Of a stretch of DNA of 64,000 bases, positions 36,284 through 63,248 are shown in pieces (position 1 is the first letter of the stretch; each line of letters starts with the position of its first letter). Location of the stretch: positions 3,596,001 through 3,660,000 of the forward strand of contig NC_135242.1 in NCBI RefSeq assembly GCF_947623445.1, given 5' to 3'. The position numbers and the translations under genes are program-made. The notes beneath the pieces were generated by a model. It ran no database searches. It saw only the letters and a list, made by a program, of their open reading frames with translations, and was not told where the DNA came from. The DNA comes from Clavelina lepadiformis. Its lineage: Eukaryota > Chordata > Ascidiacea > Aplousobranchia > Clavelinidae.

Positions 36284-39200
36284 ATGGAAGGTGAAGTTAG
36301 GGAATTACAGGATTGCGTAATTAGCTACAGGGCATTATTTGACCACTTTCTTACTCCTTTGCCATTGCTGGAGTTTATGCCAACTTTAAGAGATGAAGGT
36401 AAACGTTTTGCTTGTATAGAAATATATAATTGTATAAGTACAAAATTGCAATAATGCTCAAAATATTTTGTCGATGCTTTCAGTAACTCTGCTTTGATAA
36501 TGTTGCAACGTAGCAGTCAAAACGATTGCTTTATTTATGATGAATGCCCGTATTTAGTTGGAAATTTTAATTGTAACTGAAGTAAAACATTTACCCTACT
36601 TTGTTTTTTTTGCTATAAACGCTATGATATGATCGTATTTAAAAGGAACACAATCTCTGCCTCAACCTTCATTCACACCTTTCTTTTTTTACTCAGTTAA
36701 CTCAGAATGTATTGTAATGTACTTGATTTGACCATGTACATATGTCAAGCTTTTATAGCTTTGACGGCCAAACCAGTTAAGCAACTGGAAAATTATCATG
36801 TGTTTGTCTGACCATATGCAAGTCATTCGTAGGAGAATAACTAATTAGCAATAATCATGCCTTGAGATGAGATTCATTAGCATTGAGGAAGAGCCATAAA
36901 TGTTGATGTTACTGTAATGTAGCGCAGTACACATCCCAATTTGTTACAATGTAATCACAATAATTATACTTTAATCAGATTCAGGTTAACTTAAAAGTGG
37001 GTTAAACTTGGATTAAATTTATTATATTAGCTGTTGTAAAGCAAAGCACTCTTAGTTTAGATCATAATTAAAATAATCTGATCTTATGCATACCATCATG
37101 AAAATTATAACAATTCTCAAACCTTTTGATTTTTAATACTACTAGCTGAAAGGATAAAGTAAACTAAACGGCCATAAACGGAATGTAATGTTATTTGTTA
37201 AGCATTGTTTTGTTATTGTATTAATTGGTGATTTGTGCTGTACGATTGCAAAGAATTGCTCTTTGGGAAGGCCCAGTTTGGTGCAACAATATTTCTGATG
37301 TCGTTGTTATCACATATTTGTACTTTTACAAAATCTGTAGCTCGAAAACAAATCCAAGACCTTCATGATCGCCCTAGAAAGCAAGTCGATATATTTCTCA
37401 AAGAATTGTTGGAATGTGGTAAAAGCGGTATTTACCAGTCTTTCTTGGATGCTTTGAGCAAAAGTGAAGGTAAGTTAAGCTGGCTTGGGTAGAACAATCT
37501 TTTATGCTTATAACTAATTGCCCTTTTTATATGTAAATTAATACATTGTGCAGACCAACGTTGGATCCATGATTTTATGATTGGAAACCTGAATAATGAA
37601 CTGACTGATAAGTTCATATATCACATTGAGAATGCCGAAACCTTTAAAAAGCTTTTTGACATTATTCAGCCTCAGTTAAATGTGATTGATGCACGAACTC
37701 TTGTCACTGTGCTGAGGCCATGGCTGTCTGAAGGAGAAAGGTAAGTCAAAAAATGTGCAACATGTCAATTATTTTTGAGTATATGAAAAGATTTAATTTT
37801 AAATTATGAAAGGCGTTGTGTTCGATAGATCTATTCTGCATGGTATGAAGATATATTTAAAGTTAATTATTCATTTTCAATTTTACTTTTATTAGTTAAT
37901 AGTTTGTACATAACTGCAGCTGCTATTTTTTGCAGAGATGACCTAAATGAGAAATGTAATAGATCAGGAAGTACTTATGCATTAGCATGGATCATAGACT
38001 TTATTTTGAGAAAAAAGCCAACTTGGTTAAAAGAACTTTATAATCACGCAGAAGAAGGAAACTATAGCAATGAAGTGGCAGGAACATTAGCCAAGGCATT
38101 AGCACAGTACTTCATTTTCGATGGTAAGTAATTTTGTGTATAAAAGATGAAAACATCATCTACAAACAATGATCAGTTACATTTCTGACCACTGTCCATT
38201 ACTAATTACTGGTATACTGTAACCTAAACAGTGGTAGAGAAAGTAGAGTACTGTGTAAGTAGAAAGTGGTAAATTCTAAATTCAGATTTATCATACATTA
38301 CTAAGTTGTTGTGGTTTTTCTTAGAAAACAATGAAAATGTTGTTGGAAGAGAGGAATATATGGAATGCAGTTCGGTAGTTCAACATTTGATAATAATCAT
38401 TATTCTTAATATACTGTTGAAAATCAATGAAAATTATTATCATTACCTTTGTTGATTTCAGCAACCATCTACAAGTACTGGGTGTTTTTATTTACATGGT
38501 ACCATCGAAAAAAAAGAAAATGAAATGGAAAACTCACCTCTAAATGAACAACAAATGGAGGTTGGCAATGAAGAGGTAAATGAGAATGTTGATGAAGGAT
38601 GTTGTTTCAAACAGTTGCTAATGTCTGCGTTTTAAATACTTTTGTATAACTTAAAAGTTTAGTTTTCATTGCTATGATGTTACTTTTGCACATGAGTTTT
38701 CTGCAAACATTGATAAATTAGATGGTGCCGCTATCTTTATAAATATAGAGACTTCGTTATTATTGTTTGATAGCAAAGTGCCCAAGAAGAAGATGATGAT
38801 GAGGACCTTGATCACATGTCACTTAGTTCCGACGAATTTTTCGATGCTGAGAATGAAATAGGTATTGATAAAATTTGCAAACAACATAATGTTTTAAGTA
38901 TGCTGTAGACAATGCAATTTGTCATTTTTGTATTTTTCATATCACGTCCCAGAACTATGTGACCCATACCAGTCGTATGAGCTTCGCGGGTATCAACACG
39001 AACTTGCTTATCTTGCAAGACAGGGTAAAAACGTCATCGTCTGCGCCCCTCCAGGTAAAGATAATGTGCTAGATGGTGTAATACTGGTATTTGAGAAGTT
39101 ACACCTTGCTAAAACTAAATACGTTTGAGGAGATTTATTGTTTATCAAATTCGCATTAATTTAATTTTTGTGCACTGTCAGTTTAACACACAGCCAATAC

Positions 39201-42200
39201 CGGTACAGCTTAAAATGATTCAATCCCCACAAAATTAAACGAAAAGCATTTAATGTTTGTTTTGTTTTTACTTTGTTTCTGTTAACATTTACTTAAGTTG
39301 TAAACATATACAAAATTTTGTGTTGTTAGGTGCTGGAAAAACCCTTGTGGCCGCAAACATAATTCAAAATTATTACGAAACCAGTTGCAGAGATGATGAA
39401 ACAAAGCGCAATGTTCTATTTTTTACTCCTGGAATTGCTCTGGCACAGCAGCAACATGACAGATTTAAGGAGTATCTGCCGCCAAAATTCAAGTGCATAA
39501 TATAAAATCAAATATAAATCTTACAATGCTATGTGAAGTGTATATTGAATCGTCTGTATTTTCAAGAAAAAATTGTCTGACATATTTGAAATTTTTTTTC
39601 AGGACAGATTATCGGTGCGGAAATGGTGACCGCGCATCTCTTTTGGCAGTGAAGGATTTAGATGTTGTGATTTTGACTCCGCAACTTTTAGTTAATGATC
39701 TCAATGTGAGTGATCATTAATGCAAACCTTATTTTCTGATGAAAGTGAAAAATAGTGTACCAAAATCATTCTACTTAAAGTATTGTAAAACATTTCACAC
39801 TGTCATTTCACAACTTGAGATACCTGTTTTGCAGAGTAATAAAAACGATAAGTCGGCGGTTAAACTTGACGAATTTGGAATGTTGATATTTGACGAATGC
39901 CATCACTGCAAGGGAGGAGACCCTTACAATAACTTGATGAGGCAATACTTTAGACTGGAAAATGATTCAAAAAAGTTACCTCAGGTTCATGATTTACTAT
40001 TTACTGCTACTTTTATTCATCTTCATTTTTTCTTACCAGTATACTCATCAAATACCTACTTGGGATGGTGAAGACCTGTAAAGGGACTGTAAAATACTTT
40101 CCTTGTTCTATATTATTTACTTGTTTTATATTCTATGTACAAAACATGTTCCTGCTTAAATATTCTAAGACAATATCTATTGCTAGCAGTCATTGAAATA
40201 GATTAGTATTGTGTGCATGAAAGGATTAAGATTTTGTGTCTTATTTTTTATAAATATTTTACATTGCGTGAATCAAAACGCTGTGCACTATTTGTAGCTG
40301 TTACTTGAAAACTTTCTTTCATCAGATCTGAATTTTTTTAAATAAAACAGGTTATTGGCCTGACTGCTACTCTTGGAATGGGGAAGGTAAAAACAAACAA
40401 AGATTCAGCCTTACAAGAAATGAAGCGGTTGTGTGCTAATCTCAATGCCATTGATGGTGTTGTGACTGTTTGTGACTCACAGAATAGGAAAGAAATGGAG
40501 AAGTACATTGCAAATCCAGATGAGAGTAAATGATCTTTCTTCCTTGTCCAAATTTTACTAATTACCTTTTTTTTAATGGCCGTAATATTTCACCGTATCA
40601 TTATTATTTGTGGGTTTGAGGTTTGAAATAGCATAATCAGCAGAGCCAGAATTGATAAATAATGCCTACAGAGACGAACAACATATTTCTGCTGCCATGC
40701 TTTAATCCAATGTTTTAGTTGTTCTTATTTTGCTTCAATGTAAGTTTTAAAGTCAAATGTATATCTTTAGGCCATTTACTAATGGATATGGAAAGGAATG
40801 ATCCATTTTTTGAAAAAGTTATTACTCTGATGACAAACATTGAACAAGTCCTTATCGATTTGAAAGGTTGGTTTGTTTTTATCAAAGAATTGGTGTAGGT
40901 TCAGAATCTTGGTCCTTAGAAAAGGCTACAAACTTGTGTTACCAACTTAAAAGCATACACTGTAGTACACCCAAAAATAGGTGCAAGTATTTTTAATACA
41001 TTATCCAAGAGCAATGCAATATTTAAAAATTTGTGCAATGGATGTCATATTTTTTAGAAGAGTCAATATCAAGGGCTCCAGGCTTCAGACAAAATGATTT
41101 TGATCGGGATATGTTTAAGCAATGGTGTGTGAAAGCCAAGGAAGAAATCGCAGAATCGAACCATTCCCGTGATGCTTATACCTGTGTGGAATATCTAGAG
41201 GTAAATTATCGATGATGTTGTTTTAGTAGAATTTTATATTTTTATATTTTAATCATCGGTAACAATTTATTGTAAAAAATATTGCACCATGAGAGAAACT
41301 GCTTTCTGGCAAATTATATTCATGAAATTGAGATAATGATAGAAAATTGATCATGGGAATTTCTGAATGAATATGAGCTGCCGGTAGTTATTCAACAACC
41401 AAATGTTTCTTGCCAAGGTGTGCGGAGATGCATTGGATATCTACTACATATGCCGACCGGAAGCTGCTTTAAAAAAGTTACTAGATGAGACTTTAGATTC
41501 ACAGAAACAAGAAACACGTACAGAAAAATTGCTGCATCAATATCACACAGGTTGTTGCTTACTGACGTTGTGTTAACTTAGTTTATCACTTGCAGGTATG
41601 ATCCTACAATGAACAAGACATAATCTTAAGCGTTTATCACAGTGTTGTTTGGTGATAATCAAGTAATATATAGAGTTTTGCATGTCAAGGTTTTCACACT
41701 GCCTTGCATCTTTGTAACAACTTGTAGAGTTTTTATAGATGCCTTGAACACACTAAAAGAAGTTTGTGATGATCCCCGCTGTGTAAACCCAAATCTTGGT
41801 AAAATCAAGAAATGCATTTTGGAGAAATTTGAGACTGTTTCAGATTCGCGTATCATGCTGATGACGCAAATGAAGGTTTATGCCTACGCACTGAAAGTAT
41901 GTAGGAAATATATCTTCGTGTTTACTCTATGCATATAACGTTTGATTTTTATCAATCTTTTATTTCATATAATTTATGATTCGTTTTTTACTGCATAGTC
42001 TCATATTTGTTCCAAAATGCCATGTATTAATATTCGTTCCCAATTGTACTCATACAAGCACTAAGCTTAATACCTATAACATTGTGACTCAGTAATACAA
42101 TTTATAAAACACAATTAGGATTGGATGAACGATGATGAACAATTAAAAGTCTTGAAACCTGTGGTTTTCACTGGGACTCAAACTTCAGCGGGCGTGAAGG

Positions 42201-45200
42201 GTAAGTAAGACGATTAAAAGGTATAGTGTAAGCTCTCTAACGTAACTTCACTTAAACCAACAATTTGGATATCTCAAAATGCTTAACTTAACTGTTCCAG
42301 CAAATCCTGGGACATAACTAGCGCTCTTAATCTTAAAATTAGCGAAACAGTTATTTATTGTGACGTAGATGATTTGCTTCTTAATAGGTTTTTATAGGCA
42401 AAAATCGTCAAATTTTAATTTTTGTTCCACTTTTTAATTCCTCTTCCCCTAAAACATTCACAATGACTGTAGAGTATAATATTAAAGAACTTGAGTCAAG
42501 GATATCGGTACGCTGTAGTAAAAAGGTTATATAGAGAATGGAGATACACGCAAATATACAAACAAAAAATGTAACAAACAATTAAAGCAACTAGACAAAC
42601 TGAGATGAACGAAGTTAGACAAGTATAAAATGAAACCAGAAAGTTTTTACTATTTTACGATATCTTTTCTCTCTCTCTTTTTTCCTTTGAAATCAATTGT
42701 ATCTTCTCAGAAGGGTCGTGGGGTTAACAGTTCTAGGCACTTCCTTACCACTTTGCAATTTTTTGTCACGTCTTCCAGTTCAGGTGAAGAAATACCATGA
42801 CCATGGCCAGGTCAGTGATGCAAATGTACTACCTGGATCTTAATTGATCTGATTGGCTTTTATCTGTTAGTCTGGCTAGCATGACTTGCTTTGGTAGTCT
42901 TTTCTAAATCAATTTGGTGAAGTTTCCATACCAACGTAGTAGGGACTTCTCAATTTGAAAAGGTAGGAGCTCAGCGTTGAAAAATTTTAGAATTTCAATA
43001 ATACGAATTTGATTTAGTAGTATTAAGTTTCTCTGAGCAACAGCTGACTGATGGACTCACACATGACTGCACTTGCTTTTCCAATTTGTGTGTCCAATTC
43101 GATGTCTTGTCTTCCATCACTGGTGAATTGCACTCCATAGTCCATAGTACATTAACTTTTCCACTTGCTAGAGTTTTTCACTGCGCTATTGTTCTACTGT
43201 TGTTGTAACCAAGACACACATTTCACCAAGGCTTTGCTTGTTTATCCAGTTCAGGTAAACTATGAAGACGAAAGGTGACAGCACGCACCCTTTCCAAAGT
43301 TCAACATCCACAGTGAACATATTTCACTTAACTTTGTTTAAACGAGCACAAATTTCAAGACATTTGTACAGTTATATAATGGCTACTAGTAACCTGCCAT
43401 CAGCACCGTACTTTTGCAGTACTCCTCAGAGCTTATTTCAAGGATTCAATCATCTGCTTTTTTCAAGATCTACGAAACAGTTGTAAACGTCTTCTGTATA
43501 TTCCCAAGACTGTTTGAAAATTTTCTAGATAGTTAAATTTTCACTCATTGTGCTCCGAGCAGGAGGAAAACTACACTGTGTGTCCTCAAGCCGTGATTTA
43601 AATATTTCACAGCATTGCTTTTCAAGACATTTGACATACATCTTACCAGTAACACACCAATTTTTCGGTGTTTTACTGGAACTCTGCACCACTTGACACA
43701 CACTGGTCTGCTGAGGATTTCTTTTCGGTCCATGACCTTGAGCATATCATATTGATTTTCATTACAACCATCAGCCTCACAAGCTTTTAGAGATCTTCAG
43801 CCTCGATCTTCTTTTAAAGATCTTGGATTACTATGGCCCCTGTGAGTTTAGTTTCTTCACTAACAGCATTGGCTGTGTCCTGGGGGGTAATTCGATGTTA
43901 CTGCAACAGGGTTCAACAGGTGTTTAAAGTATTTTCTCCAACTTCCAAGAATGTCTTTCTCTGATGGGAACTTCAGTGCCTCGACAAACTTTTGAACTAA
44001 AGTGGAGGAAATTTGTATTCAAAGGATACCCATACCAAGACGGGTAAAATGTAAGAGTTTGTGCTAAAAACTGACAATTATAAACACGCACATACAGTGT
44101 GATTGATAAAGGACATTGATCATAGCATCGTTAATGTCCAGCTATGTTTTTCATTTAATACCTGGAGTCTGGCATTAGCTAGTTTACTTTAAGGTTATCA
44201 TGAAGTACCGTAATCCTTCTGAAGTCCCCTCAATGGCCTAATTGCTTTTATCGTACTTAATCCAGCCTAAAGTGTTCTCACCATGCTATTTTTTGACACT
44301 GTTGCCTGTACCTCAATCTTTAAACTGTAGCCCTGCAACGACCTCAACTGGGACTTTAAAATGTTGTACTCCTGGATTCTCATGAAAGGTTTAAGGTGAA
44401 GTGGCATTAGATTATAAAATGCAGACTTTACGCTCAACGCTTCTAGCTTATAACAACCCTTGACAAAAGCGAATCATCGTGGTATTTACGTAACAGTAAA
44501 TGAATAATTGACTAATTTTGACATAACAGGCACTAGTTCCTGGAGACCATAAAAACACTTTCAGTTAAACAAATTTTTGAGTTAATTATTTTCCACGATA
44601 TAACTAAATATACATTTATCTTTCTTTTACAGGTCTATCACAGCAAGCACAGCGAAAAACAATAAAATCGTTTAAATCCGGACAACATAAGATCTTGATA
44701 AGCACTCCACATGCTGCAGGGGAAGGCATTGATGTTGCTGATTGCAATTTGGTGATAAATTACAACTTCTTGAGAAATGAAAGTTTAACATTGCAAATTA
44801 AAGGTAATCTTCAATATTATCTTCATATCAAAAATATGTTTTTGTCCAAGCATTATCTATAATGTTGTGATGTAAGCGTTGTAGTGATAAATAGCATTAT
44901 ATAAAATTTATATAAATAATATAAAAATTTTTGTCTGTTTTTTGATCCGGAAAAAATGAAAATCATGGTTAATTAGTTATAACTAGTTAATTAATTAGGT
45001 TAATTAGTTATAATTAGTTAATTAGTTAGGTTAATTAGTTATATTTCAATTGTACAGGTCGAGTACGAAAGCGTGGTGGCGAAATGGTCCACATTTCATC
45101 TGACAGAGTTGCACGAAGAGATCGGCTCAATGTTCATAGAACTCAACTGATGAATGAATGCACTGACAACTTGGTGGATTTCATCCAGAATAACCAAAAC

Positions 45201-46022
45201 GTTTACAGGGAAGAGGTTTGTTTGATATTCGCATTCACAGGGCTTGAAAATTATTTCATAGATCCTAGATATAAGGTCTATAGAAAAATGTTTCATAAAC
45301 ACTGACACAATTTAAACTATGCTTTCATTTTTAGCTTAAAAATCTGAATACAATTGATATGAGAGAGGTTCAAAGCAAAGTTTTGAGAAAATTAGAAGAA
45401 TCTCGAGTGAAACAAACAAATGATGAATTTCTGTTGTATTGTAAAAAGTGCAAAGTGTTGGTTTGTTCCTCTTTTGATTTTGTGTAAGTAACTTTTTGTA
45501 TGGCATAAGATATTGCACTCTGTGTTGTGTCACACAAAAGTATGCTAAACAAAAACCGCGGACTTTCTTTGAAAGGGGTTGGAACTTTTATTCAAAATCT
45601 AAGGCAGAGTTTCCTTTCTTTCGAGTCTGCAGTATGTCTGCAAAATCATCTTACCTCTGTGATTTTTTATTTGCATTTTCATGGGCAGGGTTGTGGACAA
45701 CCAGCAATACATCAATATCACCCCTGGATTTAAAGCGAAATACAAGATGATAGAGCATCCCAGAAAAGACAAACAGGATGGCATGAGCCAAGACTGGAAG
45801 AAAATAAGCAAAGTTATCTGCAAAAATTGCAATCTTGATTGGGGCATAGAAGCTCTATATAAGGGAGCAGTTGCCCTACCACTTATAAAAATTAAAGGAT
45901 TTAGAATAACTAAAAAAGCCACTACACGCCACTATATTGTAAAACAATGGAAAAATGTACCCTTCAAGCCACAAGAAATAAGTCTTGATACCATACTGAA
46001 ACGATTATGTGATGAAGATTGA
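36284..46022 (+). CDS. RIG-I-like receptor (RLR), tandem copy A, complete
   Basis: Twenty-one exons give 995 codons in frame: 36284-36398, 37341-37469, 37554-37740, 37936-38123, 38325-38374, 38462-38575, 38774-38861, 38953-39054, 39330-39492, 39603-39705, 39835-39984, 40351-40525, 40771-40866, 41058-41200, 41418-41550, 41739-41896, 42119-42200, 44633-44803, 45058-45215, 45335-45483, 45689-46022. Residues 1-206 form two CARD-like helical domains (FLKELLEC...FLDAL resembles RIG-I CARD1). Residues 207-290 are a variable acidic linker. Helicase motifs follow: PPGAGKT (323-329), DECH (433-436), TAT (468-470) and QIKGRVR (780-786). The C-terminal domain has zinc-type pairs C871/C874 and C929/C932. 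The family senses viral double-stranded RNA in the cytosol and signals through CARDs. Whether it groups with RIG-I or MDA5 needs a tree. Intron 17 holds a LINE. Confidence 0.93.
36580..36970. repeat. Intron-1 block inverted relative to RLR copy B
   Basis: Read in reverse complement, this segment of copy A intron 1 resembles 49205-49625 in copy B intron 1. Shared landmarks include CTCATCTCAAGGC, ATGGTCAGA-AAACACAT and TTTTCCAGTTG in the same order. Boundaries are approximate and judged by eye. Confidence 0.65.
42690..43960 (-). mobile_element. Degenerate non-LTR retrotransposon inside RLR copy A intron 17
   Basis: The minus strand shows frame-broken reverse transcriptase remnants: around 43550 a QCSFPPARST stretch like the QCGFRPGRST motif of many LINEs, then VDLEKA, and around 42880-42970 a PFQIEKSLLRWYG segment like the C-terminal LRWFGH region of CR1/Rex-like elements. 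It lies between exons 17 and 18 of copy A and explains most of that 2.4-kb intron. The corresponding intron of copy B is only 136 bp. A second copy of the same family lies at 48240-48600. Confidence 0.8.
44967..45045. repeat. 31-bp AT-rich tandem repeat in RLR copy A intron 18
   Basis: A unit beginning GTTAATTAGTTATAA is repeated about 2.5 times just before exon 19. It is absent from the matching intron of copy B. Confidence 0.8.
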
Positions 46023-46640
46023 TTAATTTTTATCTTTGGTTGGCTTGATGGTGTAAAAGCTGTTGTACGTTAATCCCAGCAACACCACTTTGTCACCAAG
46101 ATCAGTAAATTTACTTGATTCTGTGGAAGTAATTTGCATAATGTTATCATAAGGAGGCTGTTTCAGCGCTCGCCACAAGGCGAACAAATGCCCTTACGAG
46201 ACGGTTCTCCACTAAGTTTTTTATTTTGACACATGTTGTTGCTTCCAGCAAAAATTGATTGGATTTTTTCAAGTTTGCCGCAATTGTGGGCGGGGATAGC
46301 TCAATAGCATATTATATAGCTAATTCTGCCTTCGTTATAACCTTTCGCCTGTGTTAACTATATTATTTGTGCATAGTTTATTATCACTTAATACAACATG
46401 TGTCGAAACACAGTCGACAATTTGAAATCAAATTTTCATTCTATTTCTGTTGTAAAAATCTGCATAGTTTGAGTTGTGCATCAAAGGCATAACTTTTTAA
46501 ATGACCTGGTTCCTATTGTTAGTATCAGAATGCTTGTCTTTAGGCTGAGAAAAGTATTTTTTGTCTCAAACTCCGCATTGATTCATCAACGCTCGACCCC
46601 AATTACCGAGCTTCTCTGTGTGCAGTTTTTGTTGTATATA
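46023..46640. other. 3' flank of RLR copy A
   Basis: No gene was recognised between the stop codon of copy A and the pogo/Tigger-type MITE. This stretch must contain the 3' UTR. Confidence 0.35.
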
Positions 46641-47576: not shown

Positions 47577-47578
47577 TA

Positions 47579-48239: not shown

Positions 48240-48600
48240 CTCTCTTTGAAACCCATTTTCTCCTTCCAAGAGAGTCGTGAGCAGTTTGCGATCTTGGCTA
48301 AAAGGATACCTAGTCGTGACCAGGACAGGCTAGTAATGTAATTGTACTACTTGGTTCTTGGTCAACTCATTGATCTTTTACTATTAGACCTATCAGTTGG
48401 TGTGGTAAGCAACTAAACATGACTTGATTTGCAAGTCTTTCCTGAAGCATTCCGGTGACATGACCAAACCATCGCAAGTGGGATTTTTCAACTCGAAGAA
48501 ATAGGGGCTCAACATTTAGAGATTTACGGATTTCTGTGCTGCGCATTTGATCTAGTAACGTTACACCATAAAACTCTTTTTAAAAATCCTATTTCGGAAG
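48240..48600 (-). mobile_element. LINE 3'-region fragment, same family as in RLR copy A
   Basis: The minus strand encodes, with frame breaks, EIGFLKRV, MRSTEIRKSLNVEPLFLRV and SHLRWFGHV, the reverse-transcriptase C-terminal region of CR1/Rex-like elements. At the DNA level it aligns by eye with 42700-42990 (shared CAGGTCAG/ACAGGCTAGTAATG, GGGACTTCTCAA/GGGATTTTTCAA and GGAGCTCA/GGGGCTCA landmarks). It lies about 370 bp upstream of the copy B start codon. Confidence 0.8.
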
Positions 48601-48965: not shown

Positions 48966-51900
48966 ATGACAAGTGAACAAAAGGATTTAGAGGTTTGCAT
49001 AAGTAATTACAAGGCAGTATTTGACTACTTTCTAACACCTCTGTCGTTGCTTGAATTTATGCCAACTTTAAGAGATGAAGGTAAAACTTGCCGCTATTTA
49101 AGTTTCACAACTTCCAAAAATTTAACAGATTAAAAAGTTGTAAAAGTGCTAGTGGCATTAAATTTTTAATGTGTTTTACAAACAACTTTTTATTTTAATT
49201 TACGCTGTGTGACGGTAACAAATAAGGATGTGCACTGCACTACTGGACGTATTTCAGTAACAAACATTTCAGTCTCATGCCGGCGTTGGCGGCTTCTGTC
49301 ATTCCTGTAGTTGAGCGAGTTGAACAGTGAAGTTTGATGACCGTTCAAGGCTATACCTCGATACTAACAAACCTCATCTCAAGGCGTGATTGTTACTAAT
49401 TAGTAATTGTCCAAGGAATAACTTGTATATGGTCAGATAAACACATTAATTTTCCAGTTGTTTGATTAGTTCTACTGTTGGAGCTAAAAGCTCAGCATTT
49501 AAACTTGGTCAATTTGATTGCTACATCTTGAGTTGACTGTTTAACAAAGATAGGTGTTTCTGAGACAGAGATACGCTTCTTTATTAGTATGTCGATGACA
49601 CAGTGTTTTTAGCAAAAAGACGTTGTAAAAAACAGTACTGAGCATGACTTGCTCATAAGGTGATTGTTAAATTTACGTAATGATAAAAATGTCCAACTTA
49701 ATACGGGCTTGGTCATGTAATTAAAGCAATCACTGTGACAGTACATCACAATACAATCTGTTTGAATGGTTTATACAGGGTATGCATATTTAAGTTACTA
49801 CTCTTGTATACATGCAGATTTACTACAGTTTGATTGCTTTTTATTATAAGCTTTATTACGCTCTTCTTTAAGCTCCAAGAGTGGCAAACTATGTTAATTT
49901 AATATTTTTACATCTGTCAAATTGTAAAATACTTGTGCTTTTTCAGCACCAGACATGCCAGATGGACTTTAGTTGATAATTATTTATAAATAATTTTCTA
50001 CTCCTAGTGTAACTCTTTAATTAGAAATCTTACAACAATTGCAGCTCGAAAAGAAATCCAATACTTCCATGATCAGCCAAGAAAGCAAGTCGATATATTT
50101 CTTAAAGAATTGTTGGAATGTGAAGAAAGAGGAATTTATCAGTCTTTTTTGGATGCTTTGAATAGAAGCGAAGGTGGGTTTGATTGCCTGTTTAGTACTT
50201 TAACAAATAAATTATATTATTTATTTGTAGGTTTTGCGTTTATTTTGTACTTTGCCAAGATGTTAATTTTTTTCATCAGTTGTTATGTTGTATAGACCAG
50301 CGTTGGATCCATGATTTTATGACTGGAAAGCTTAATGATGAACTGACTGTCAAGTTTATATATCACATCGAGAATGCAGAAGCCTTTAAAAAGCTTTTTG
50401 ACATAATTCAGCCTCAATTAAATGTGATTGATGCACGAACTCTTATCACTGTGCTGAGGCCATGGCTGTCTGAAGGAGAAAAGTAAATGGAAATGCATGT
50501 TGTTAAATATTTTTAAGCTGATGTCTGGTGCTTTTGAACGTTGATTTTACATGTTTTTGCACAAGTTAATTATTGTTTTGGTGATTTTTAAATGCTGTAG
50601 TAAACTGTAGTGTAACTGATTTAGTAAACTGTAATGTAACTGATGTAGTAACTCATTTGCAGACGCTGTCTCAGTGGTTTCCGACAGAAAAATAGTAATT
50701 GTCTTTTTTTGCAGAGACGACCTCAATGAGAAGTGTAATAGATTAGGAAGTACTTATGCATTACCATGGATCATATACTTTATCTTGAGGAAAAAGCCAA
50801 CATGGATAAAAGAACTGTATAATCACGCTGAAGAAGCAAACTATAGTAATGAAGTGGAGGGAACATTAGCTAAGGCATTAGCGCAGTACTTCATTTTTGA
50901 TGGTTAGTCATTTTTCTAACTCTAACTTAGCATGATTACGACCTTTACAGGAGTAAGTTGTAAATATAAATAACTGACTGTTACGGAAATCAATTTTTGC
51001 CTGCTTCATGTGCTATTTAACTGTAATTATGTAACCTATATTTACTTTTATATGTCATGTTTTATTTGAAACATCAAATGTGCAGCAGCAGCAAGCAAGC
51101 TATTGCAAGCTTTGGCTTTGTGTGCAATTTTGTGAGGTATAACTTAATATTACTTTTAGAAAATGAAAAAAATGTTGCTGAAGAGAAAACGCAGAGTTCC
51201 GAGGTTGGTTCGAACATCTTTAGTTTAAATCAAGATCCATATTTATTGTCACATTTTGAGCACTCAAATTATTGCTTTGTTTGTTTGTGTTAGCAACCAT
51301 CTACAAGTGCAGCTTATTTTGATTTGCACAGTGGAGTCAACACAAAAGTAAATGAAGCAGAAACTTCTTCTTCAAATGAGCTACATATCAAGCTTCACCA
51401 TGTTGAAGTGAGAATGTTGTTAAGAAAATTCTTTTTATAAAGAGCAGACTTTTAATTTTTTTGGTTCTTTTTGATGTTATCGAATTAACATCAAACTAGA
51501 GTTCAATTAAGTTTTTTACAAAAAATCTATTTAATTAAGAACTGTATTGCTAGAGTCCTCATGATGACACTGATGATAAAGACAATGAAACTTTAGTAAA
51601 CTCAGAACAAAATATTGATTCAGAAAAAGTTGCTGATGGCGACGCTAGTATTGGTAATGGTGAGAATTATAACATGTGCAGAAAATGTACAATGTAAAAT
51701 AGATATCTTTGAGGCATATTTGACATTCAGCAAAACCTGATTTTAATGTCACATTCATTTCAAACAACATAGAAATTAAAGAACCATGTGACCCATACCA
51801 GTCGTATGAGCTGCGAGGATATCAACACGAACTAGTCAAGCTTGCTAGACAAGGCAAAAATCTTATCATATGTGCCCCTCCAGGTAACAACAAGTAATTT

Positions 51901-54900
51901 GTAAGCTTTACATCATTAAAAAGATAAGGTATGGTTACATGGATTACTTACTGGTAGGTTGATTGTTTCTTTTCGCATTTGACTTGTGGTGATAATTATA
52001 TAATCAAAACTGTTATGTTATTAGGTGCTGGAAAAACCCTTGTGGCCGCAAACATAATTCAAAATTATTACGAAACCAGTTGCAGAGATGTTGAAAAGAA
52101 GCGCAATGTTCTATTTTTTACTCCTGGAATTGCACTGGCACAGCAGCAACATGACAGATTTAAGGAGTATCTGCCATCAAAATACATGTATAAAATATGA
52201 AATACTATAGAATATCTATGTTACATTGCAATACGTATAAAATTCAGCTTAGCTGTAATGGAAATTTGCTTTAAGAAAAATTTGTTTTTTTTTCAGGATA
52301 GATTATCGTTGTGGATATGGTGACCGCGCATCTCTTCTGGGAGTGAAGGATTTAGATGTTGTAGTTTTGACCCCACAAATCTTGTTGAATGAACTGAATG
52401 TGCGAGTCTTCATTAAAATTAGATTACATTTGTTAATTTATGCAATGGTGCACATGTACTCGTCAAAAAATACATCTGACCTATATTTTTCGCACCATAG
52501 TTTTCAATTTTACTTTGAAATATTCTTTTCGTAGAGTAAAGATGAACATAAGTCCGTCTATAAGATTGATGAATTTGGATTGTTGATATACGACGAATGC
52601 CATCACTGCATAGGGAGCCACCCTTTCAACAAAGTGATGAGAAAATATTTTGGTCTAGAGAATGATTCAGACCAGCTACCTCAGGTATTTTATTACATTC
52701 ATCCAGCCTACTCATTATAACCATCCATTATGGTGGTGAAATGGTATTAGTAATGGTTACTCACCATTTTTGTCATTTGTATTATTCAATTAGAAATACC
52801 CAGGGTTTTGGTCCTAATATATAGAATGGTGTGTAAAATGAAGGCTGTAAAAGTTTCTTTGAGGCATAGTTGTAAAAACTGGGATTTGTGATTCAGTTAA
52901 GTTCACACTTTTATCTGATTTCTTTTGACACGAGTACCTTGTTGAAAGTTTTGAACATAGCTGGATACTAGTCTTCTTCAGGAAATGACTCAACTTGAAA
53001 TGAGTCAAAGCAGTCTTGTGTAGACTTTATTAAAATGAGCTTCTTAATGCATATGATAATTAATTTAACTACCTATTAATAACATTCATAAAAGTTCAGC
53101 CTATAACTTGTAGGTAGTTTCATTGATGAACTCACACCGTACTTGATTTATTCTGATCGCACAAGCTATTACTTGATTGATTTAAATCATTGTCATGAAT
53201 AAACTGACTCAAGATGCCATACCCAAATTGCTTCACTTGACTCAAACCAGCATTACAGATGACTTGATGCAAGTTATTTTTGACTTAAATAACTTTGCTG
53301 TGTGGTTTAATTTAAAAAAATTGAAAACAGATTATTGGCCTGACTGCTACTCTGGATATTGGAAAGGCAAAAACTAAGGATGCAGCCTTGCAAGAAATGA
53401 AGCAGTTGTGTGCTAATCTTAATGCAGTTGCTGGTGTTGTGACTGTTCGTGACTCACAGAATAAGAAAGAAATGGAGAAACACATTGCAAATCCAGATGA
53501 AAGTTAGCTTGTGTTTTTGGTTATGTTAACTGTTAAATGAAAAAAATGAAAACCGCCTTATAAGTGGCCAGTTTATACAATAAATTAAATAAGTTTGAAA
53601 GTTTAAAATGCATTTTCAGATCATTTACCAGTGAATATGAAAAGGGATGATCCATTTTTTAAAGAAGTTATAACTTTGATGAGAAACATTGAACAAGTTT
53701 TGAAAAATTTGAAAGGTTTGCTTTTTTACATTTTTAATATTGCTTGCAGTTAAATTATTTCAACACAAAGTTACATTACACATGCACTTGTGATTGCAGA
53801 ACCTATACCACAAGCTCCAGACTACAGTCAAAATGATTTCAACAAGCAAAGATTTAAACAATGGTGTACGGAGACAAAGAAATCTCTTGCATTGACTGAA
53901 TCGCCACTTTCCAGAAATGCTCGATCCTGTGTCGAATATCTTGAAGTGAGTTGCTGCTCTGTTAATCATTCTAATGTTTGATTAGTTTTACCCCTGACAA
54001 ACCTTAGAAGAGTCTAGCATGACATATGCTGTCAATACAACACTTTTCATTCCGATTCTTAAGAAAAGTGCCAGAAATTAACAATGTAACTTGACAATTT
54101 ACGACTATGGTAGCTAACGGCCAGCAAACAGCTAAAGCAAATCCGCCTATTTCCAGCCCTACTCGGTTTTCACCAATATTTTGACAGAACCATACTATGC
54201 TATCTACAGTATAGTATTAGGTGTTATAGTTGTTTATTGTTTCCAACTTTTTTTTCTTAAATAGATAAACTTCAATTTATAATAATTGTATTTACATGAT
54301 CAGAAATAATTTGCACTTCTGACAAGCATTTAATATTTTAACACAAATTCTCGTAACTGGAGGAAGATCAAATGTGTTAAGTTGGCTTGCAGCATTGCTA
54401 AATTGCCATTACATTGCATTTCTTTCGTTCATAATCAAATATTGCATTGTAAAGGTGTGTGGAGAAGCATTGGACCTCTACTATGTCTGCAGGGCAGAAG
54501 CTGCTTTAAAATTGTTTAAAAGTATTGTAGACTCACAAAAACAGGACACTTCAACAGAAATATCGCTACATAAATATCATACAGGTTGGTGTATACAAAT
54601 GCTGTGTTTAGTTTTTTTCTCACTGAAACCATGAACCCCTTAATAAACCAGGCATACCTCGAGGCAGTCATCATAGTGTTGCAATAGTAATAAAAATAAT
54701 AGTAAATAATACGAAGAACGAATTGCTTTATTTGCCAAGCTTATCATACTTTCTTGTAGCACTATGAAAAGTTACAAACTTTACTGCAGATGCAATGAAT
54801 AAGTTAAAGAAACTTTGTGATGATCCTCGCTGTGCAAACCCAAACCTTGCCAAGATAAAGAACTGCATTTTGAAGAAATTTGCTGAAGTTCCAAATTCAC

Positions 54901-56877
54901 GCATCATGCTAATGACACAAATGAAGATATATGTTTATGCACTGAAGGTATGTATATGTCTTTGCGATTGCATTTTGTGTTTGCAATACTTTGCATGATG
55001 GAAATCTAACTTTAATTAATAATAATTCTTTTCCTGGTAAATATTTTTCATGGTGTAGTTACAAAGTTATAAAGTTTATAAAATTTAGGATTGGATGAAT
55101 GATGACGATAATTTAGAAGCATTTCAACCAGAAGTATTCACTGGTTTGAGAAGTTCAGCGGGTGTAAAAGGCAAGTTATTCACACTTACAATTTACGAGT
55201 ACAAACAGTGTACTTCAAACTTTTTAAAAATAATAAATTGAAATTTATGCTTTGAAATTAGCGTGTATTATAATTAATAAATTTATTATTACGATATCCC
55301 TTGCAGGTCTCTCAATCAAAAAACAGAAGGCAATAATGAAATCGTTTCGATCTGGAAGACATAAGATCTTGATAAGCACACCACATGCTGCAGGGGAAGG
55401 CATTGATGTTGCTGATTGCAATTTGGTGATAAATTACAACTTCTTGAGAAATGAAAGTTTAACAGTGCAAATTAAAGGTAATCTTCAATATTATCTTACA
55501 TCTTATCTTATAAATAATTACTAATATGCATATTATGTGTGATATTTTGTAGGTAAGTATAATCTATGGCAATTGTTAGTATTGTTACAATATCAATTCA
55601 ACTGTACAGGTCGAGTACGAAAGCGTGGTGGTGAAATGGTCCACATTTCATCTGACAGAGTTGCCCGAAGAGATCGGCTCAATGTTCATAGAACTCAACT
55701 GATGAATGAATGCACTGACATTTTGGTGCATTTCATCCAGAGTGATCATACGGCCTACAGGAAAGAGGTTAGCCGAATAATTGTTATTGGTAGGCTCTGG
55801 AAGTTTTTAGTTGTGTATTAAACCCAAAAATAGATTTAATAAAAATAGAAAACAAGGTTTAATAGAAATCCATGTTTTCATTTTTTATCTATGACAACTT
55901 ACACAGCTATTGATTCTAAAAGTGGATGAGATTTATCTATATGCCAATACAACTAAAGTTTGCATCTGAGACTAAACTAAGAAAATTGAAGTTGGATTTC
56001 TACTAAACTTTGTTTTCAAGTTCAATTTTGAATCAAATTTTAACGTTTTGTCATTTAAACCTTTCTGGACAATTACAGAACGATCTGAAAAAAATGATAA
56101 AAATTTTAGCCATTTTACTTAAACATTAACATTATTTCAAAAATTTCTTTGACGTTTAGCTCAATGATCTCAATAAACTTGACATGAGGCGATTTCATCT
56201 GGAAGTTCTCAAAAAATTGAAGGAATCTCAGGAGTTAGAGAAAGTAAAGCAGTCAAATGAAGAGTTTTTGTTGCAATGCGCCAAGTGCAAAGAGTTTGTC
56301 TGTTCGTCGCATGATCTAAGGTGAGTAGAAAGCGAACATCTGGAAAAAAACAGCATAAATGCTGCTTTTTTAATAAATGCAGTTTCAACGGAAATCCATT
56401 TTCAAGCTGTTGGTATCACTTTCTGCTACCAGTATTTGCCAGCAAGTATAATTATATTTTTAACAACACAAACTTCACCAAACACTTATTATCTGAAATG
56501 ATTCTCTTGATTACACTTTTCCATTTCTTAATATTGTTATATCTAGACTTGTGGAAAATGCACATCGCATCAATATCATGCCAGAATTCAAGGAGAAATA
56601 TGAAATAAAGGAGCACCCTAGAAAAGACAAACGTCAGATGGGCCAAGATTGGAAGAAAATAAACAAAGTTATCTGCAAGAATTGTAATCTTGATTGGGGC
56701 ATAGAAGCTCTATATAAGGGAGTGTTTGTTCTGCCACTGATAAAAATTGAAGGATTTAGAATAACTAAAAAATCTACCGGAAGTCCATATGTTACCAGAA
56801 AATGGAAAAATGCACCATTTGTGCCACAAGATATAAATCTTGATGTTGTACTCAATCAATTATGTGATGATGAATAA
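48966..56877 (+). CDS. RIG-I-like receptor (RLR), tandem copy B, complete
   Basis: Twenty-one exons, all in the same positions and phases as copy A, give 1002 codons: 48966-49080, 50045-50173, 50296-50482, 50715-50902, 51160-51203, 51294-51407, 51554-51653, 51773-51883, 52025-52187, 52297-52399, 52535-52684, 53331-53502, 53620-53715, 53800-53945, 54455-54584, 54790-54947, 55089-55170, 55307-55477, 55610-55767, 56160-56320, 56547-56877. It has the same order: two CARD-like domains, an acidic linker, helicase motifs APPGAGKT, YDECHH, TAT and QIKGRVRKRGG, then a C-terminal domain with QCAKC and CKNC cysteine pairs. No frame damage was seen. Exon 17 ends in a GC donor (AAAAG then GCAAGT at 55171). 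Role by homology: cytosolic viral-RNA sensing. A possible AATAAA lies near 57456. Confidence 0.93.
49205..49625. repeat. Intron-1 block inverted relative to RLR copy A
   Basis: Counterpart of 36580-36970 in the opposite orientation, lying within intron 1 of copy B. Similarity is interrupted by small gaps and the limits are approximate. Confidence 0.65.
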
Positions 56878-58329: not shown

Positions 58330-61300
58330 ATGGATAGTGAACTACAACGTTGTATAACTAACTACAGACCGTTGTTTGTCTACTTTTTGACACCTCTTCC
58401 ATTGCTGGAACTTATGCCAACTTTAAGAGATGAAGGTAAACGTTGTTACTTGTTATACACTAAAGCTTTGTTACTTAAGTGAAAGCACTTAAAACTCAAA
58501 ATGATGCTTTCTTATTTTGTTGAGCCAAGTTGATAAAGAGTCGCATATTGTCTGTCTTATTTGTTGCTTGTTGTCTTGTTATTTGTATTTGTGTCTTCAT
58601 TAAGTGAACTTTATGTTTATTTTATTGTCAATATGCATATTGCCATATCTCCATAAAGTACATTGAAATTTATTTTATAAAAAAAACTAAGGAGTTTTCC
58701 ACAACTTCGGTTCTGCTTGGTATTTTTTGCATTACAGTCATTTGGTGGATAATACGATGTGGCTTTTGTGTGAAATTTTGAAGCAAACTGAAATTGTCTT
58801 CATTAATCTTGTTAACCATTAACCAACACTTAAATTTTCAATTAATTCAAAGTTTTATTACTCATACTCAACAGCTCAGCTATCATGGTTATGGTGCCAT
58901 AATCACCGTGGTCATCATTCTTATATTCAGACTTTATGAATATGTATTCTTACAACAATTGCAGCTCGAAAACAAATCCAGGACTTCCGCGATCGCCCAA
59001 GAGAGCAAGTTGATATATTTCTGAAAGAATTGTTACAGTGTGGTGAAAAAGGAATTTACTGATCATTTTTGGATGCCTTGAATAAAAGTGAAGGTAGGTT
59101 TAAGTTTTTGTTGGTTACTTATATCTTGATTATGGTTATTCATATTTTTTCTATCATAAACATTACTTTTTAGTTTGTTTGCTACTTTGAATATACTTGA
59201 TTGTGTCTTTAACTTATTATATTTTATAGATCAGCGTTGGATCCATGATTTTATGATCGGAAACCTGAGTAATGAACTGACTGATAAGTTCATATATCAC
59301 ATCGAGAATGCAGAAGCCTTTAAAAAACTTTTTGACATAATTCTGCCTCAGTTAAATGTTATTGATGCACGAACTCTTGTCACTGTGCTGAGGCCATGGC
59401 TGTCTGAAGGAGAAAAGTTAGTCTCTATTTGACGTATGTTATCAAGTTGATTTTTACGTGAATGTGTTATGTTGTTTTCAACTTGTGCCGAAATTGTGAT
59501 TACCTAGTCACCTTTGTTTTAATCTGAAGTTAGGCAATAGTTGTGTTTGAAACGTGGCAGTTTTATAAAAAAAATAGCGTTGTGAATATTCTTACTTTTG
59601 TTGTAATATTAGCAACAGCTTGGTACAATAAGAATATTACAAAGTATCTCCAGGCACAACTATGCGTACATTCTAACAACTACAGCTGAAATTATCTCTC
59701 TGTTGTAATTTTAAATGATATGAAACATTAGTTGGCAGTGTTTCGCATATTAAAAAGATACATATATACACGTTTTATCATACCGGTGTAGTCTGACATT
59801 CACAACAAAACTATCTCTGTTATTTTTGAAGCAACGATCTGAACGAGAAGTGTAAAAGTTTAGGAAGCACTTTTGCACTGCCTTACATTATTAGCTCTGC
59901 TCTAAGGAAAAAGCCAACTTGGATAAAGGAACTTTATAAACACACCAAAGAAGCAAACTATAGCAATGAAGTGGAGGGAAAGTTAGCTAAGGCGTTAGCA
60001 GACTACTTCATTTTTGATGGTAAGTTACATTGATTGACCCAGGGCTTCACAAAGCTAGCCTGTAGATAGATAATTTTGGTGGTCATCTAAGAATAGGATA
60101 TTTTCCTGTTTGTGTTAAGATCGCTTAAAAGCAAACGTGTGACTATTAGCTACCATTTCCTATTCATATTTCTGAAGTCCACCGATGGGTCTGGTACACA
60201 TTTGTTATCGGTATTTTTATTACCTCAATTGACTGTAGTCATATTGTTAAATGACTTACTCAAGCCAATTGTCTGAAGTGACATGCTCTGTTTCAAATTT
60301 TGGTAATTGTGAGAGTGAAAATTAGTGTTTCGCATAAAAAATGGTGCATTTTCGTAATGCATTAAACTTAGTTGAAACAGATGGTTAACTAGGCTAAAGA
60401 CAGTCCTGACGAATGCACAATACAAATACACAACTTAACACAGCACATAATGTGACTTTAGCAGAGTATGAAATGTGGCGTTTAACTGACTTGGGGGACA
60501 CAAATAGTAATTTTGCTCAACTTGACTTACCGGTAAGTCAAATTTTTGTTAAATTTTTGAAACTTTTGACTCTGTTACAACTCTGCATGTCTTTCTATGC
60601 AACTTACTTTTAGAAAACAAAGAAAATGCCGAAAAAGAGGAAGCAATGGATTCTATAGAGTGCAATTTTTTGGTAATTTTTTCTTTGCATTGCTCTTATG
60701 CTGTAATTTTATTACTGTAGTATTATTATGTATTAGAAGATTTAGAAGACTTTTCTTTTAGCAGCATCCGTGATTTATAGTTGTTTGAACCATTTCATCG
60801 TATATCTCATATTTCATTACAATACTAATATGTTATAGCAGTCATTGCTCGTGAACTATGCTCATATTAAAGTGAACGTTTTGAGCATTTATGTAAGATG
60901 ACTTTTATAGATGTAAATTTACAGTTAAATTTATTAAGTTCATATATGTAGAAACCAGTTTAATGTGTATTTCTGTTACAAAATCATTGAATTTATTTGT
61001 TTCAGCAACCATCTACCAGTTCGGGATATTTTGAATTACATGGCTTCATTAACAAGCATAAAAATGACACAGAAAATTCAACTCCAAATGAACAGCAAAT
61101 GGAGCTTGACCATGAAGAAGTAAGTAAGAGTGTTGATGAAAAGCTGTTTGAGGCTTGCTTGTCAAAATCTTTATTCTTGCTTTGCATTAAATTTTTTTCG
61201 GTAAGTTTAAAGCAATTATTAACTTGAGTACTTGCTATAAAATAATACAAGGGACAAAAGTAGTTATTATTTGGTAGCAAAATGCCCAAGAAGATTGCGA

Positions 61301-63248
61301 AGACCTTGATCAAATGTCACTCGATTCAGATGAAATTGTTGACGATATGATTGACATTGGCAGTGGTAGAACATGCAAAAAATTAAATGTTTAGTTATGT
61401 TGTAAAAATTACAATTTTACTAAACGTAAGTTTAACAATATTTAATCACTTTAAATAAGGAAAGAAACAATTATGTTATCCATCTAAAAATTATGAGCTG
61501 CGAGGATATCAACACGAACTTGCTAATTTGGCTAAAAGAGGCAAAAATGTCATTATATGTGCCCCTCCAGGTAAAGACAAAGTGAAACTTCATTACTTGA
61601 CAAATAAAAACTTTTAATTTTTTTATGTTTAAAAATTCTTTTTTACATGATTTCATTTGATGTATTTTATGGCTATGGCTTTCTTAACTCATTTAATTCA
61701 CTAAAACTTTTACCAACAGTTTTTGGTGTTTTATAGGCGCTGGAAAAACTCTTGTTGCTGCAAATATAATACAAAATTATTATGAAACTTGTGGAAATGA
61801 AGAAACAAAACGTAAAGTTTTATTTTTTACTCCTACAATTGTTCTAGCTCAACAGCAAAATGACAGATTTAAGGAGTATCTGCCATCAAAATACATGTAA
61901 TAGTACAGTGAAATGGTGAACTGATGCCAGCGCAGTGTATCACGATACGGCATGAGCCATATTTAAAACCAAGAGTAATGTAATAATTTTTTAACACTTT
62001 TTGTTTTGCCAGAACTGATTATCGTTGTGGAAATGGTGACAATGCATCTCTTCTGGGAGTGAAGGATTTAGATGTTGTGGTTTTGACTCCAAAACTTTTG
62101 TTAAATGAACTGAATGTAAGTTTAAGGTTATTGAAATCATAGTTTTTTTATACAAAAATCCCCTATTGCATGATGGAAGAATTAGAGAAAAGGAGATTTT
62201 AACACAGAGTGTCTCATTTTACAGAGTGATGACAAACAGAAATTTGTTTATAAACTCAATGAGTTTGGAATGTTGATATATGATGAATGTCATCACTGTA
62301 GAGGTGGCCACCCTTACAATAACTTAATGAGGAAATATTTTGGACTTCAAAATGATTTAGACAAGCTACCTCAAGTACAGATAAACAGTTTCTGTTGCAT
62401 TGATCTATTTACATTTGTTTTGCTAACTTTTATGACCGTGCATACCTATTTATAATAGTGAGAACTTCCAATGGCTGAATGACAACAATAAGTCATAAGT
62501 TTTTTGTTGCAACATTTAAGTTACACTGAAACATTAGTCTCTGAATGGTCATTTTTACTTTGATAAGCTTTGAGATGCTTGCAATAAAATTGTCATACAA
62601 TTTTTATTACTTTACCATTAATTGTGCAAAGCCAAAATATGATGCTAAGCTTTGTTTTGGCAAAGCCCTTGGAGTTTAAAACAAACAAGGTGGCAAAAAT
62701 TGAATCGTGTTACATGTTGGTAGGTTAGCATGGCCACTAAATCCACATCATACTTAAATAACTTTATTAACTAAATGCTACTATTTAAGATAACAGGTAT
62801 TTATGGAGAATTTTGTTCAACTTTTTAAAAATAAAACAGGTTATTGGCCTGACTGCTACTCTGGGTATTGGAAAGGCAAAAACTAAGGATGCAGCCTTGC
62901 TAGAAATGAAGCAGTTGTGTGCTAATCTTAATTCAGTTGCTGGTGTTGTGACTGTTCGTGACTCACAGAATAAGAAAGAAATGGAGAAACACATTGCAAA
63001 TCCAGATGAAAGTAACTTAAACTTTTTTCTGATGATAACCTTTTTATTTTGGAAAAAAAATTGAAGAAAGATTCTGTTTTTAGCTTTTACCCCTTTTTTA
63101 TTTGTGGAAATTACATAATTGTGAATTTTGAGGTCAAAATTGTATTTTTCAGGCCGATTACCAATGAATATGGAAAGGGGTGATCCTTTTTTTAAAGAAG
63201 TCACAGCTTTGATGAAAAACATTGAACAGGTTATGAAACACTTTGCAG
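58330..63248 (+). CDS. RIG-I-like receptor (RLR), tandem copy C, 3' end outside window, in-frame TGA in CARD1
   Basis: Thirteen exons are visible: 58330-58435, 58965-59093, 59230-59416, 59832-60019, 60614-60672, 61006-61119, 61278-61365, 61460-61570, 61737-61896, 62013-62115, 62225-62374, 62840-63011 and 63153-63248. Exon phases match copies A and B. The sequence keeps APPGAGKT, YDECHH and TAT. Exon 2 contains TGA at 59060-59062 (codon 68), where A and B have CAG, within the CARD1 segment IYQSFLDAL. All other visible exons are open, so the copy may be a recent null allele, may make a protein from a downstream start lacking CARD1 (an ATG lies in exon 3), or may be an early pseudogene. Exons 14-21, including helicase motif VI and the RNA-binding C-terminal domain, would lie past the window. 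Confidence 0.85.

What the first reader, a model, noticed from the sequence alone, without database searches (positions are those of the whole stretch)
36284..63248. Tandem array of at least three full-architecture RIG-I-like receptor genes
Three head-to-tail RLR genes with two CARD-like domains, DECH helicase and (in the two complete copies) a zinc-cysteine C-terminal domain. Identical exon positions and phases show duplication of one ancestor. Vertebrates have three dispersed single-copy RLRs, so a local expanding cluster suggests independent amplification of RNA sensing in this lineage. The array may continue past 64 kb.
Basis: partly seen in the sequence, partly recalled or inferred. Interest (0 to 1): 0.85.

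Follow-up and report, generated by a model that had tools for sequence, protein, structure and literature searches.

The report
Three tandem sea-squirt RIG-I-type RNA sensors
A sea squirt carries three neighbouring copies of a gene resembling RIG-I, the vertebrate alarm for viral RNA; tandem copies of such genes are already known in other invertebrates, so the array is ordinary in kind, but the copies differ at some of the amino acids that in RIG-I read the RNA end.

Summary
The array is real. The window lies on chromosome 3 of the ascidian Clavelina lepadiformis. It holds three head-to-tail, 21-exon RIG-I-like receptor (RLR) genes: c1 36284-46022, c2 48966-56877, c3 58330-67050 (3 kb past the window), with identical phases at all 20 introns. 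No fourth copy was found in the window, in the 35 kb after it, or genome-wide with the c2 CTD and CARD2. Copies are 70-72% identical, putative alleles 94.8-97.5%, so they are not haplotypes. c3 has a premature TGA in its first CARD exon.

RLR tandem arrays are published for bivalves (PMC8998645), so this is a new member of a known kind. (1) The helicases group with one Styela protein, apart from DHX58-like ascidian RLRs, and share a one-residue insertion in motif V; but their CARDs are closest to Ciona DHX58-like proteins, and the deep position is unresolved. (2) Of seven RIG-I RNA-end residues examined, c2 keeps seven, c3 six, c1 five. c1 has Gln for H830, which in RIG-I rejects 2'-O-methylated RNA. 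Divergent RNA-end recognition is suggested, not shown.

The parts
36284..46022 (+). RLR gene copy c1, ATG to stop, 21 coding exons, 995 aa
   Evidence: putative allele P0003 97.5% identical over 728 columns
48966..56877 (+). RLR gene copy c2, ATG to stop, 21 coding exons, 999 aa, no internal stop
   Evidence: putative allele P0001 94.8% identical over 1003 columns; Pfam RIG-I_C-RD, DEAD, Helicase_C, RIG-I_C on an early model
58330..64000 (+). RLR gene copy c3, exons 1-13 inside the window; exons 14-21 lie beyond it, up to position 67050 of the extended sequence
   Evidence: residues 87-997 identical to public protein P0002
59060..59062 (+). in-frame TGA in c3 exon 2 (CARD1); c1 and c2 have CAG
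   Evidence: P0002 begins with a Met encoded in exon 3, after this stop
37341..38123 (+). c1 CARD exons 2-4 (part of CARD1, and CARD2)
   Evidence: Pfam CARD_2 E 1.8e-12, 47.6 bits over a cut-off of 28.2, residues 110-188
50045..50902 (+). c2 CARD exons 2-4
   Evidence: BLASTP of the c2 N-terminus to Ciona RLRs 4.8e-32 to 4.7e-26, best vertebrate row 5.3e-11; CARD_2 37.6 bits in P0001
39055..39329 (+). c1 intron inside the Walker A motif (APP|GAGKT); same position and phase in c2, c3 and genes C, B2 and B3 of this genome
44633..45215 (+). c1 exons 18-19: helicase motifs V (STPHAAGEGIDV, one-residue insertion) and VI (QIKGRVRK)
55307..55767 (+). c2 exons 18-19: same motifs V and VI
45335..46022 (+). 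c1 exons 20-21: zinc C-terminal domain; H830-equivalent is Gln, K907-equivalent is Gln
   Evidence: RIG-I_C-RD E 5.3e-19 on exon 21; residues
56160..56877 (+). c2 exons 20-21: zinc C-terminal domain with all seven RIG-I end-binding residues examined
   Evidence: RIG-I_C-RD E 6.3e-20 on exon 21
53331..53502 (+). c2 exon 12: 98% identical to c3 exon 12, 0 of 24 four-fold sites differ; candidate gene-conversion tract
62840..63011 (+). c3 exon 12, partner of the candidate conversion tract

Best explanation
These are three paralogous RIG-I-like receptors of the ascidian Clavelina lepadiformis, made by old tandem duplication of one fast-evolving RLR gene. Shown: gene structure, domain order CARD-CARD-helicase-zinc CTD, intact ATPase motifs I and II, zinc cysteines, purifying selection. 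Inferred: they bind ends of cytosolic double-stranded RNA through the CTD, hydrolyse ATP, and release CARDs to signal. c2 is the best candidate for canonical RIG-I-type recognition (5'-triphosphate bound, 2'-O-methyl rejected). c1 (Gln at H830 and K907) should read the end less strictly. c3, in this haplotype, makes at most a protein lacking an intact CARD1 (or exon 2), so it may be a regulator or a decaying allele.
For: Pfam and PDB sequence searches: RIG-I 304 bits, MDA5 250, LGP2 238, Dicer-related helicase 177. AlphaFold model of the putative c2 allele P0001 (mean pLDDT 77.4) matches RIG-I first in Foldseek (8e-47). Motifs and CTD residues; roles of K858, K861, K888, H847, H830 and I875 from PMC11346460 (passages). 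dN/dS 0.26-0.32 between copies. P0001 and P0003 (c2 and c1 alleles) are both listed on a contig of 11,575,642 bases, not the contig of P0002.
Confidence: 0.8

Rival explanations
1. The repeats are haplotypes or an assembly artefact of one locus.
For: Ascidians are often highly heterozygous (recalled); c2 and its putative allele P0001 differ by 5% in protein.
Against: Copies are only 70-72% identical while putative alleles are 94.8-97.5%; alleles of c1 and c2 are listed on contigs of the same length, 11,575,642 bases; the published assembly is chromosome-level from PacBio and Hi-C with QV 67.4 (PMC10884593, passages).
Confidence: 0.02
2. The array is largely redundant and decaying: c3 is a pseudogene and c1 drifts, so only c2 matters.
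For: TGA in c3 exon 2 differs from CAG at all three bases; c1 lost two CTD contact residues.
Against: The other 20 exons of c3 are open with GT/GC-AG splice sites; pairwise dN/dS is 0.15-0.17 for its CARD1 and 0.26-0.28 overall (pairwise values mix both branches); c1 keeps helicase motifs I-III, V and VI in nearly the same form as c2.
Confidence: 0.25
3. The genes act mainly in small-RNA defence, as Dicer-related helicases do, and not through CARD signalling.
Against: Two CARD-type bundles are present and RIG-I scores far higher; no Dicer RNase domains in the gene. The same listing holds a paper saying that DRH-1 itself signals via CARDs (PMC11260149).
Confidence: 0.07

Closest known systems
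Vertebrate RIG-I (DDX58/RIGI)
   Same: CARD-CARD-helicase-zinc CTD; DECH box; H830, H847, K858, K861, I875, K888, K907 all present in c2
   Different: about 29% identity of c2 to turtle RIG-I; three tandem copies; TAT instead of TAS in motif III; one-residue insertion in motif V; Lys for the first Arg of motif VI; F853 not conserved; c1 and c3 differ at end-binding residues
Styela clava RIG-I-like protein P0139
   Same: best non-Clavelina match to the c1-c3 helicase-CTD profile (369 bits, next 273); clade support 100/98; shares the motif V insertion, TAT motif III and GRVR motif VI
   Different: 31-32% identity; 4 of 7 CTD residues (Asn at 875, His at 858, Thr at 888); its CARDs match c2 less well (phmmer 2.1e-14) than Ciona CARDs do
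Ascidian DHX58-like RLRs (Ciona P0023, Clavelina gene C = P0021, B3 = P0022)
   Same: RLR helicase and CTD; 7 intron positions of the helicase-CTD part shared exactly with Clavelina genes C, B2 and B3; Ciona P0028, P0023 and P0024 have the closest CARDs outside Clavelina among 123 N-termini (phmmer 8.9e-34 to 8e-26)
   Different: no insertion in motif V; none of the 9 listed has H847 or K858; separate helicase clade (100/99)
Tandem RLR arrays of bivalves (PMC8998645, passages)
   Same: local tandem duplication of RLR genes
   Different: different phylum; presumably independent duplications (not tested)

Membership tests
RIG-I-like receptor | SF2 DExD/H helicase with RLR insertion domain (RIG-I_C) and DECH box | tested here: met
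   Pfam DEAD, RIG-I_C, Helicase_C above cut-offs in c2 and in P0002 = c3; DECH in all three
RIG-I-like receptor | zinc-binding C-terminal RNA domain | tested here: met
   RIG-I_C-RD 3e-30 in c2, over cut-off in all three; four cysteines conserved
RIG-I-like receptor | two N-terminal CARDs (RIG-I and MDA5 types) | tested here: met
   CARD2: CARD_2 over cut-off in c1 and P0001, below it in the early c2 model (20.3 of 28.2 bits). CARD1: no Pfam hit; helical bundle in the model of P0001 and colinear alignment to RIG-I (16.2 bits, E 0.012) and Ciona N-termini. c3: CARD1 interrupted by a stop
RIG-I (subtype) | basic residues K858, K861, K888, H847 for the 5'-triphosphate | tested here: met
   all four present in c1, c2 and c3
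RIG-I (subtype) | H830 and I875 self-RNA discrimination | tested here: inconclusive
   both present in c2 and c3; c1 has Gln at 830 and Ile at 875
RIG-I (subtype) | end-stacking aromatics F853 and F856 | tested here: inconclusive
   856 is Trp by ungapped counting back from C864; 853 is not aromatic in the alignment
RIG-I (subtype) | monophyly with vertebrate RIG-I | tested here: inconclusive
   not in the best tree, not rejected: p-AU 0.092, 0.226 with Styela P0139 added
MDA5 / LGP2 | closer to MDA5 or LGP2 than to RIG-I | tested here: not met
   by sequence 304 bits RIG-I against 250 and 238; MDA5+LGP2 form a separate clade (100/100, 100/99), one human sequence each; by structure the three tie
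Dicer | RNase III and PAZ domains after the helicase | tested here: not met
   the CTD follows; no such Pfam hit
RIG-I-like receptor | CARD signalling to a MAVS-type adaptor | not testable with these tools
   MAVS not identified; CARD matches at 5 places, 4 over cut-off, IRF-domain matches at 15 exon places

The most novel reading that the evidence does not exclude
The three tandem receptors form a division-of-labour set that reads different RNA 5' ends: c2 as a strict RIG-I, c1 (H830Q, K907Q) as a sensor that tolerates 2'-O-methylated ends, and c3 as a CARD1-less modulator arisen inside the same cluster, in a lineage whose helicase motif V was remodelled.
Probability: 0.15. Interest if true: 0.65.

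Novelty: new member of a known kind. Interest (0 to 1): 0.38.

Why it matters
Tunicates are the sister group of vertebrates. A complete RIG-I-type CTD residue set in an ascidian, beside DHX58-like RLRs that lack it, bears on when RIG-I-style RNA-end reading arose and whether tunicates kept it. Natural tandem paralogs that differ at H830 and K907 would let the self/non-self checkpoint of RIG-I be tested by comparing real receptors. The array itself extends a known pattern of RLR amplification to an ascidian.

Tried and rejected
Dicer or another DExD/H family: rejected by domains and scores. Haplotypes or artefact: rejected. More copies: none found. The CTD protein search did not detect the divergent DHX58-like genes either, so it speaks only about close copies; the 10 kb before the window were fetched (L022) but not compared apart from these genome-wide searches.

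My first spliced-alignment rounds gave false 2-base exons and, a wrong frame around motif I; these were replaced by inspection of splice sites and checked against P0002. One search was run on an early c2 model that lacked two small linker exons.

Placement with the annelid Owenia (95/92) changed to a wider group at 86/92 once Styela P0139, Ciona P0028, Holothuria P0140 and oyster P0141 were added; I take it for long-branch attraction. Rows Ciona2, Mya and Mytilus were dropped between the two trees. A third AU test did not finish.

Result against a separate helicase lineage: with P0139 included, the CARDs of c1 and c2 are still closest to Ciona DHX58-like proteins, not to P0139. Helicase and CARD thus disagree; a fast branch of one ascidian family, or domain exchange, is possible.

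Gene conversion: exon 12 (c2/c3) has Fisher p 2.4e-4, about 0.015 after 63 implicit exon-by-pair comparisons; exon 16 (97% identical) has p 0.047 and does not survive. STING_LBD gave no match in the genome, but rang nowhere in the controls either, so this says nothing. The CARD search rang below cut-off in 2 of 14 control genomes, so its weakest match (0.067) means little. A CARD-only structure job was not run, because fragments are not clearly among the admitted sequences; PDB matches to the CARD part are barely tested (note). Families not listed by VIA-align are not excluded.

Literature: listings (open-access PMC only) showed no title or abstract start on an ascidian RIG-I-like tandem array; this is weak evidence of absence.
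Full report
Origin. The window is G000:C3:3596001-3660000 of a 209,060,895-base genome. Protein search with c2 returned three Clavelina lepadiformis proteins at 71-95% identity, one of them on a 25,736,969-base contig; chromosome 3 of the published 210.1-Mb assembly is 25.74 Mb (PMC10884593, passages), against 25,734,561 for C3 here. Clavelina is an aplousobranch ascidian.

Anatomy. Comparison of open frames showed three parallel sets of exons. Spliced alignment and inspection gave c1 36284-46022 (995 aa), c2 48966-56877 (999 aa) and c3 58330-67050. Each has 21 coding exons with the same 20 intron phases, and all 60 introns are GT-AG or GC-AG. The gaps from stop to next start are 2943 and 1452 bases. 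The c3 model is identical to the public protein P0002 from residue 87 on. Putative alleles of c2 (P0001, 94.8% over 1003 columns) and c1 (P0003, 97.5% over 728) are listed on a contig of 11,575,642 bases; whether this is the alternate haplotype or another individual is not known. Between copies identity is 70-72%.

The stop in c3. Codon 68 is TGA at 59060-59062 where c1 and c2 have CAG. It is the only internal stop. Exon 2 is 129 bases, phase 1 to phase 1, so skipping it would keep the frame (inference). P0002, named isoform X3, begins with a methionine in exon 3, after the stop.

Extent and other RLRs. RIG-I_C-RD matches 8 places in the genome: three here, four at C3:25.055-25.106 Mb and one at C3:23.565 Mb. 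The c2 CTD finds 5 exon matches, all in the three copies, the c2 CARD2 6, likewise. The other five are gene C (P0021, named DHX58-like), B2 (P0025), B3 (P0022, with several CARDs) and two partial copies similar to B3, B1 and B4. C, B2 and B3 fall in the DHX58-like clade of the tree; B1 and B4 were not in it.

Family. Pfam on an early c2 model: RIG-I_C-RD 3e-30, DEAD 7.6e-22, RIG-I_C 2.7e-11, Helicase_C 7e-10, CARD_2 below its cut-off; CARD_2 is over its cut-off in c1 and in P0001. PDB by sequence: RIG-I 304 bits, MDA5 250, LGP2 238, Dicer-related helicase 177, Dicers 105 or less. The AlphaFold model of P0001 (30-row alignment; pLDDT 77.4, pTM 0.59, residues 205-302 below 50) has N-terminal helices that I read as two CARD bundles, and its helicase-CTD part matches RIG-I structures first in Foldseek; by VIA-align MDA5, LGP2 and RIG-I tie.

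Lineage. In a 35-row helicase-CTD tree the window proteins do not join the clade of ascidian DHX58-like RLRs (100/99). In a 36-row tree that includes Styela P0139 they join that protein (100/98); P0139 came from a profile search in which it scored 369 bits and the next non-Clavelina protein 273. c1, c2, c3 and P0139 share an extra residue in motif V, GRV in motif VI and TAT in motif III; of the other 22 rows shown, 0 have the insertion, 0 have GRV and 4 have TAT (Holothuria, a Crassostrea protein and two rows of unknown host). The deep position is open. Union with the other ascidian RLRs has p-AU 0.093 and, with P0139 added, 0.179; union with vertebrate RIG-I 0.092 and 0.226; with both 0.129. 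Against a separate origin: the CARDs are closest to Ciona DHX58-like proteins (phmmer, c2 against 123 N-termini: 8.9e-34, 1.9e-28 and 8e-26; Styela P0139 2.1e-14; best vertebrate 1.6e-11), and 7 intron positions of the helicase-CTD part are shared exactly with genes C, B2 and B3. A fast-evolving branch of one ascidian family, or domain exchange, is therefore possible.

RNA-end residues. PMC11346460 (passages) names K858, K861, K888 and H847 for the 5'-triphosphate, F853 and F856 for stacking, H830 for rejecting 2'-O-methyl, and I875 as a sensor against 5'-monophosphate; K907 is recalled. On an HMM alignment of 137 CTDs, 74 have the full set H830 H847 K858 K861 I875 K888 K907 (most are vertebrate RIG-I, and c2, P0001 and human RIG-I are among the 74). 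c2 and P0001 have 7 of 7, c3 6 of 7 (K907R), c1 5 of 7 (H830Q, K907Q). 0 of the 9 DHX58-like ascidian sequences listed there have it, and Styela P0139 has 4 of 7. The set is not vertebrate-specific: it is complete in the annelid Helobdella (P0073) and in three mollusc proteins (P0044, P0062, P0085), so it may be ancestral. The consequence for c1 is inference from the published H830A effect. Whether Gln is fixed in c1 could not be seen, because P0003 ends before the CTD.

Selection and conversion. NG86 between copies: dN 0.159-0.171, dS 0.527-0.651. The linker has the highest dN in each pair. c2 and c3 exon 12 differ at 0 of 24 four-fold sites against 69 of 218 elsewhere (p 2.4e-4 before correction), suggesting conversion.

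Pathway. IRF-domain matches lie at 15 exon places and CARD matches at 5 (4 over cut-off). MAVS was not identified and the STING search was uninformative.

Known and new. Tandem RLR arrays: 8 of 13 RLRs in Crassostrea gigas, 6 of 12 and 6 of 19 in two other bivalves; 7 RLRs in Branchiostoma floridae; two or three in most chordates examined (PMC8998645, passages). A tunicate immunity review holds neither 'RLR' nor 'helicase' (PMC5465252, term search). Hence the array is a new member of a known kind, with an interesting but untested pattern of RNA-end residues.

Noticed in passing
Styela clava proteins P0034 and P0042: Two RLR paralogues (39.6% identical over 1155 columns) carry a protein kinase plus Ribonuc_2-5A (KEN, the IRE1/RNase L nuclease) instead of a CARD match, before an RLR helicase and CTD (KEN: P0042 1.8e-25, P0034 3.2e-21). 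This looks like an RNA sensor with a built-in RNase. No report was seen in one search listing; the HEPN review PMC3710099 has no RIG-I mention (term search). In Clavelina the KEN matches (2 exons) lie together at C4:5.50 Mb, away from the RLRs.
   Followed up: partly
G000:C3, about 25.07 Mb (B3 = P0022): A Clavelina RLR of the DHX58-like clade with three CARD_2 stretches before the helicase.
   Followed up: partly
G000:C3:25.055-25.106 Mb: A second RLR cluster: two genes with complete helicase-CTD (B2, B3) and two partial ones (B1, B4), B1 on the opposite strand.
   Followed up: partly
proteins P0007-P0012: RLR-like helicase plus RIG-I_C-RD proteins with no CARD in the listing, on unnamed contigs (P0007 on one of 5.7 Mb); the hosts are unknown.
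   Followed up: no
c1-c3 against Ciona and Styela proteins: Helicase and CARDs disagree: the helicase groups with Styela P0139, the CARDs match Ciona DHX58-like proteins best.
   Followed up: partly
window 1318-2076 and 6440-7150 (+): Two alpha/beta hydrolase open frames (Abhydrolase_1/6), possibly another tandem pair.
   Followed up: no
window 4551-4979 (-): Reverse transcriptase fragment (RVT_1 1.1e-16).
   Followed up: no
window 31119-31487 (-): FAM32A-like open frame (2.5e-8).
   Followed up: no
positions 55171 and 65387 of the extended sequence: GC donors at intron 17 of c2 and c3, GT in c1.
   Followed up: no
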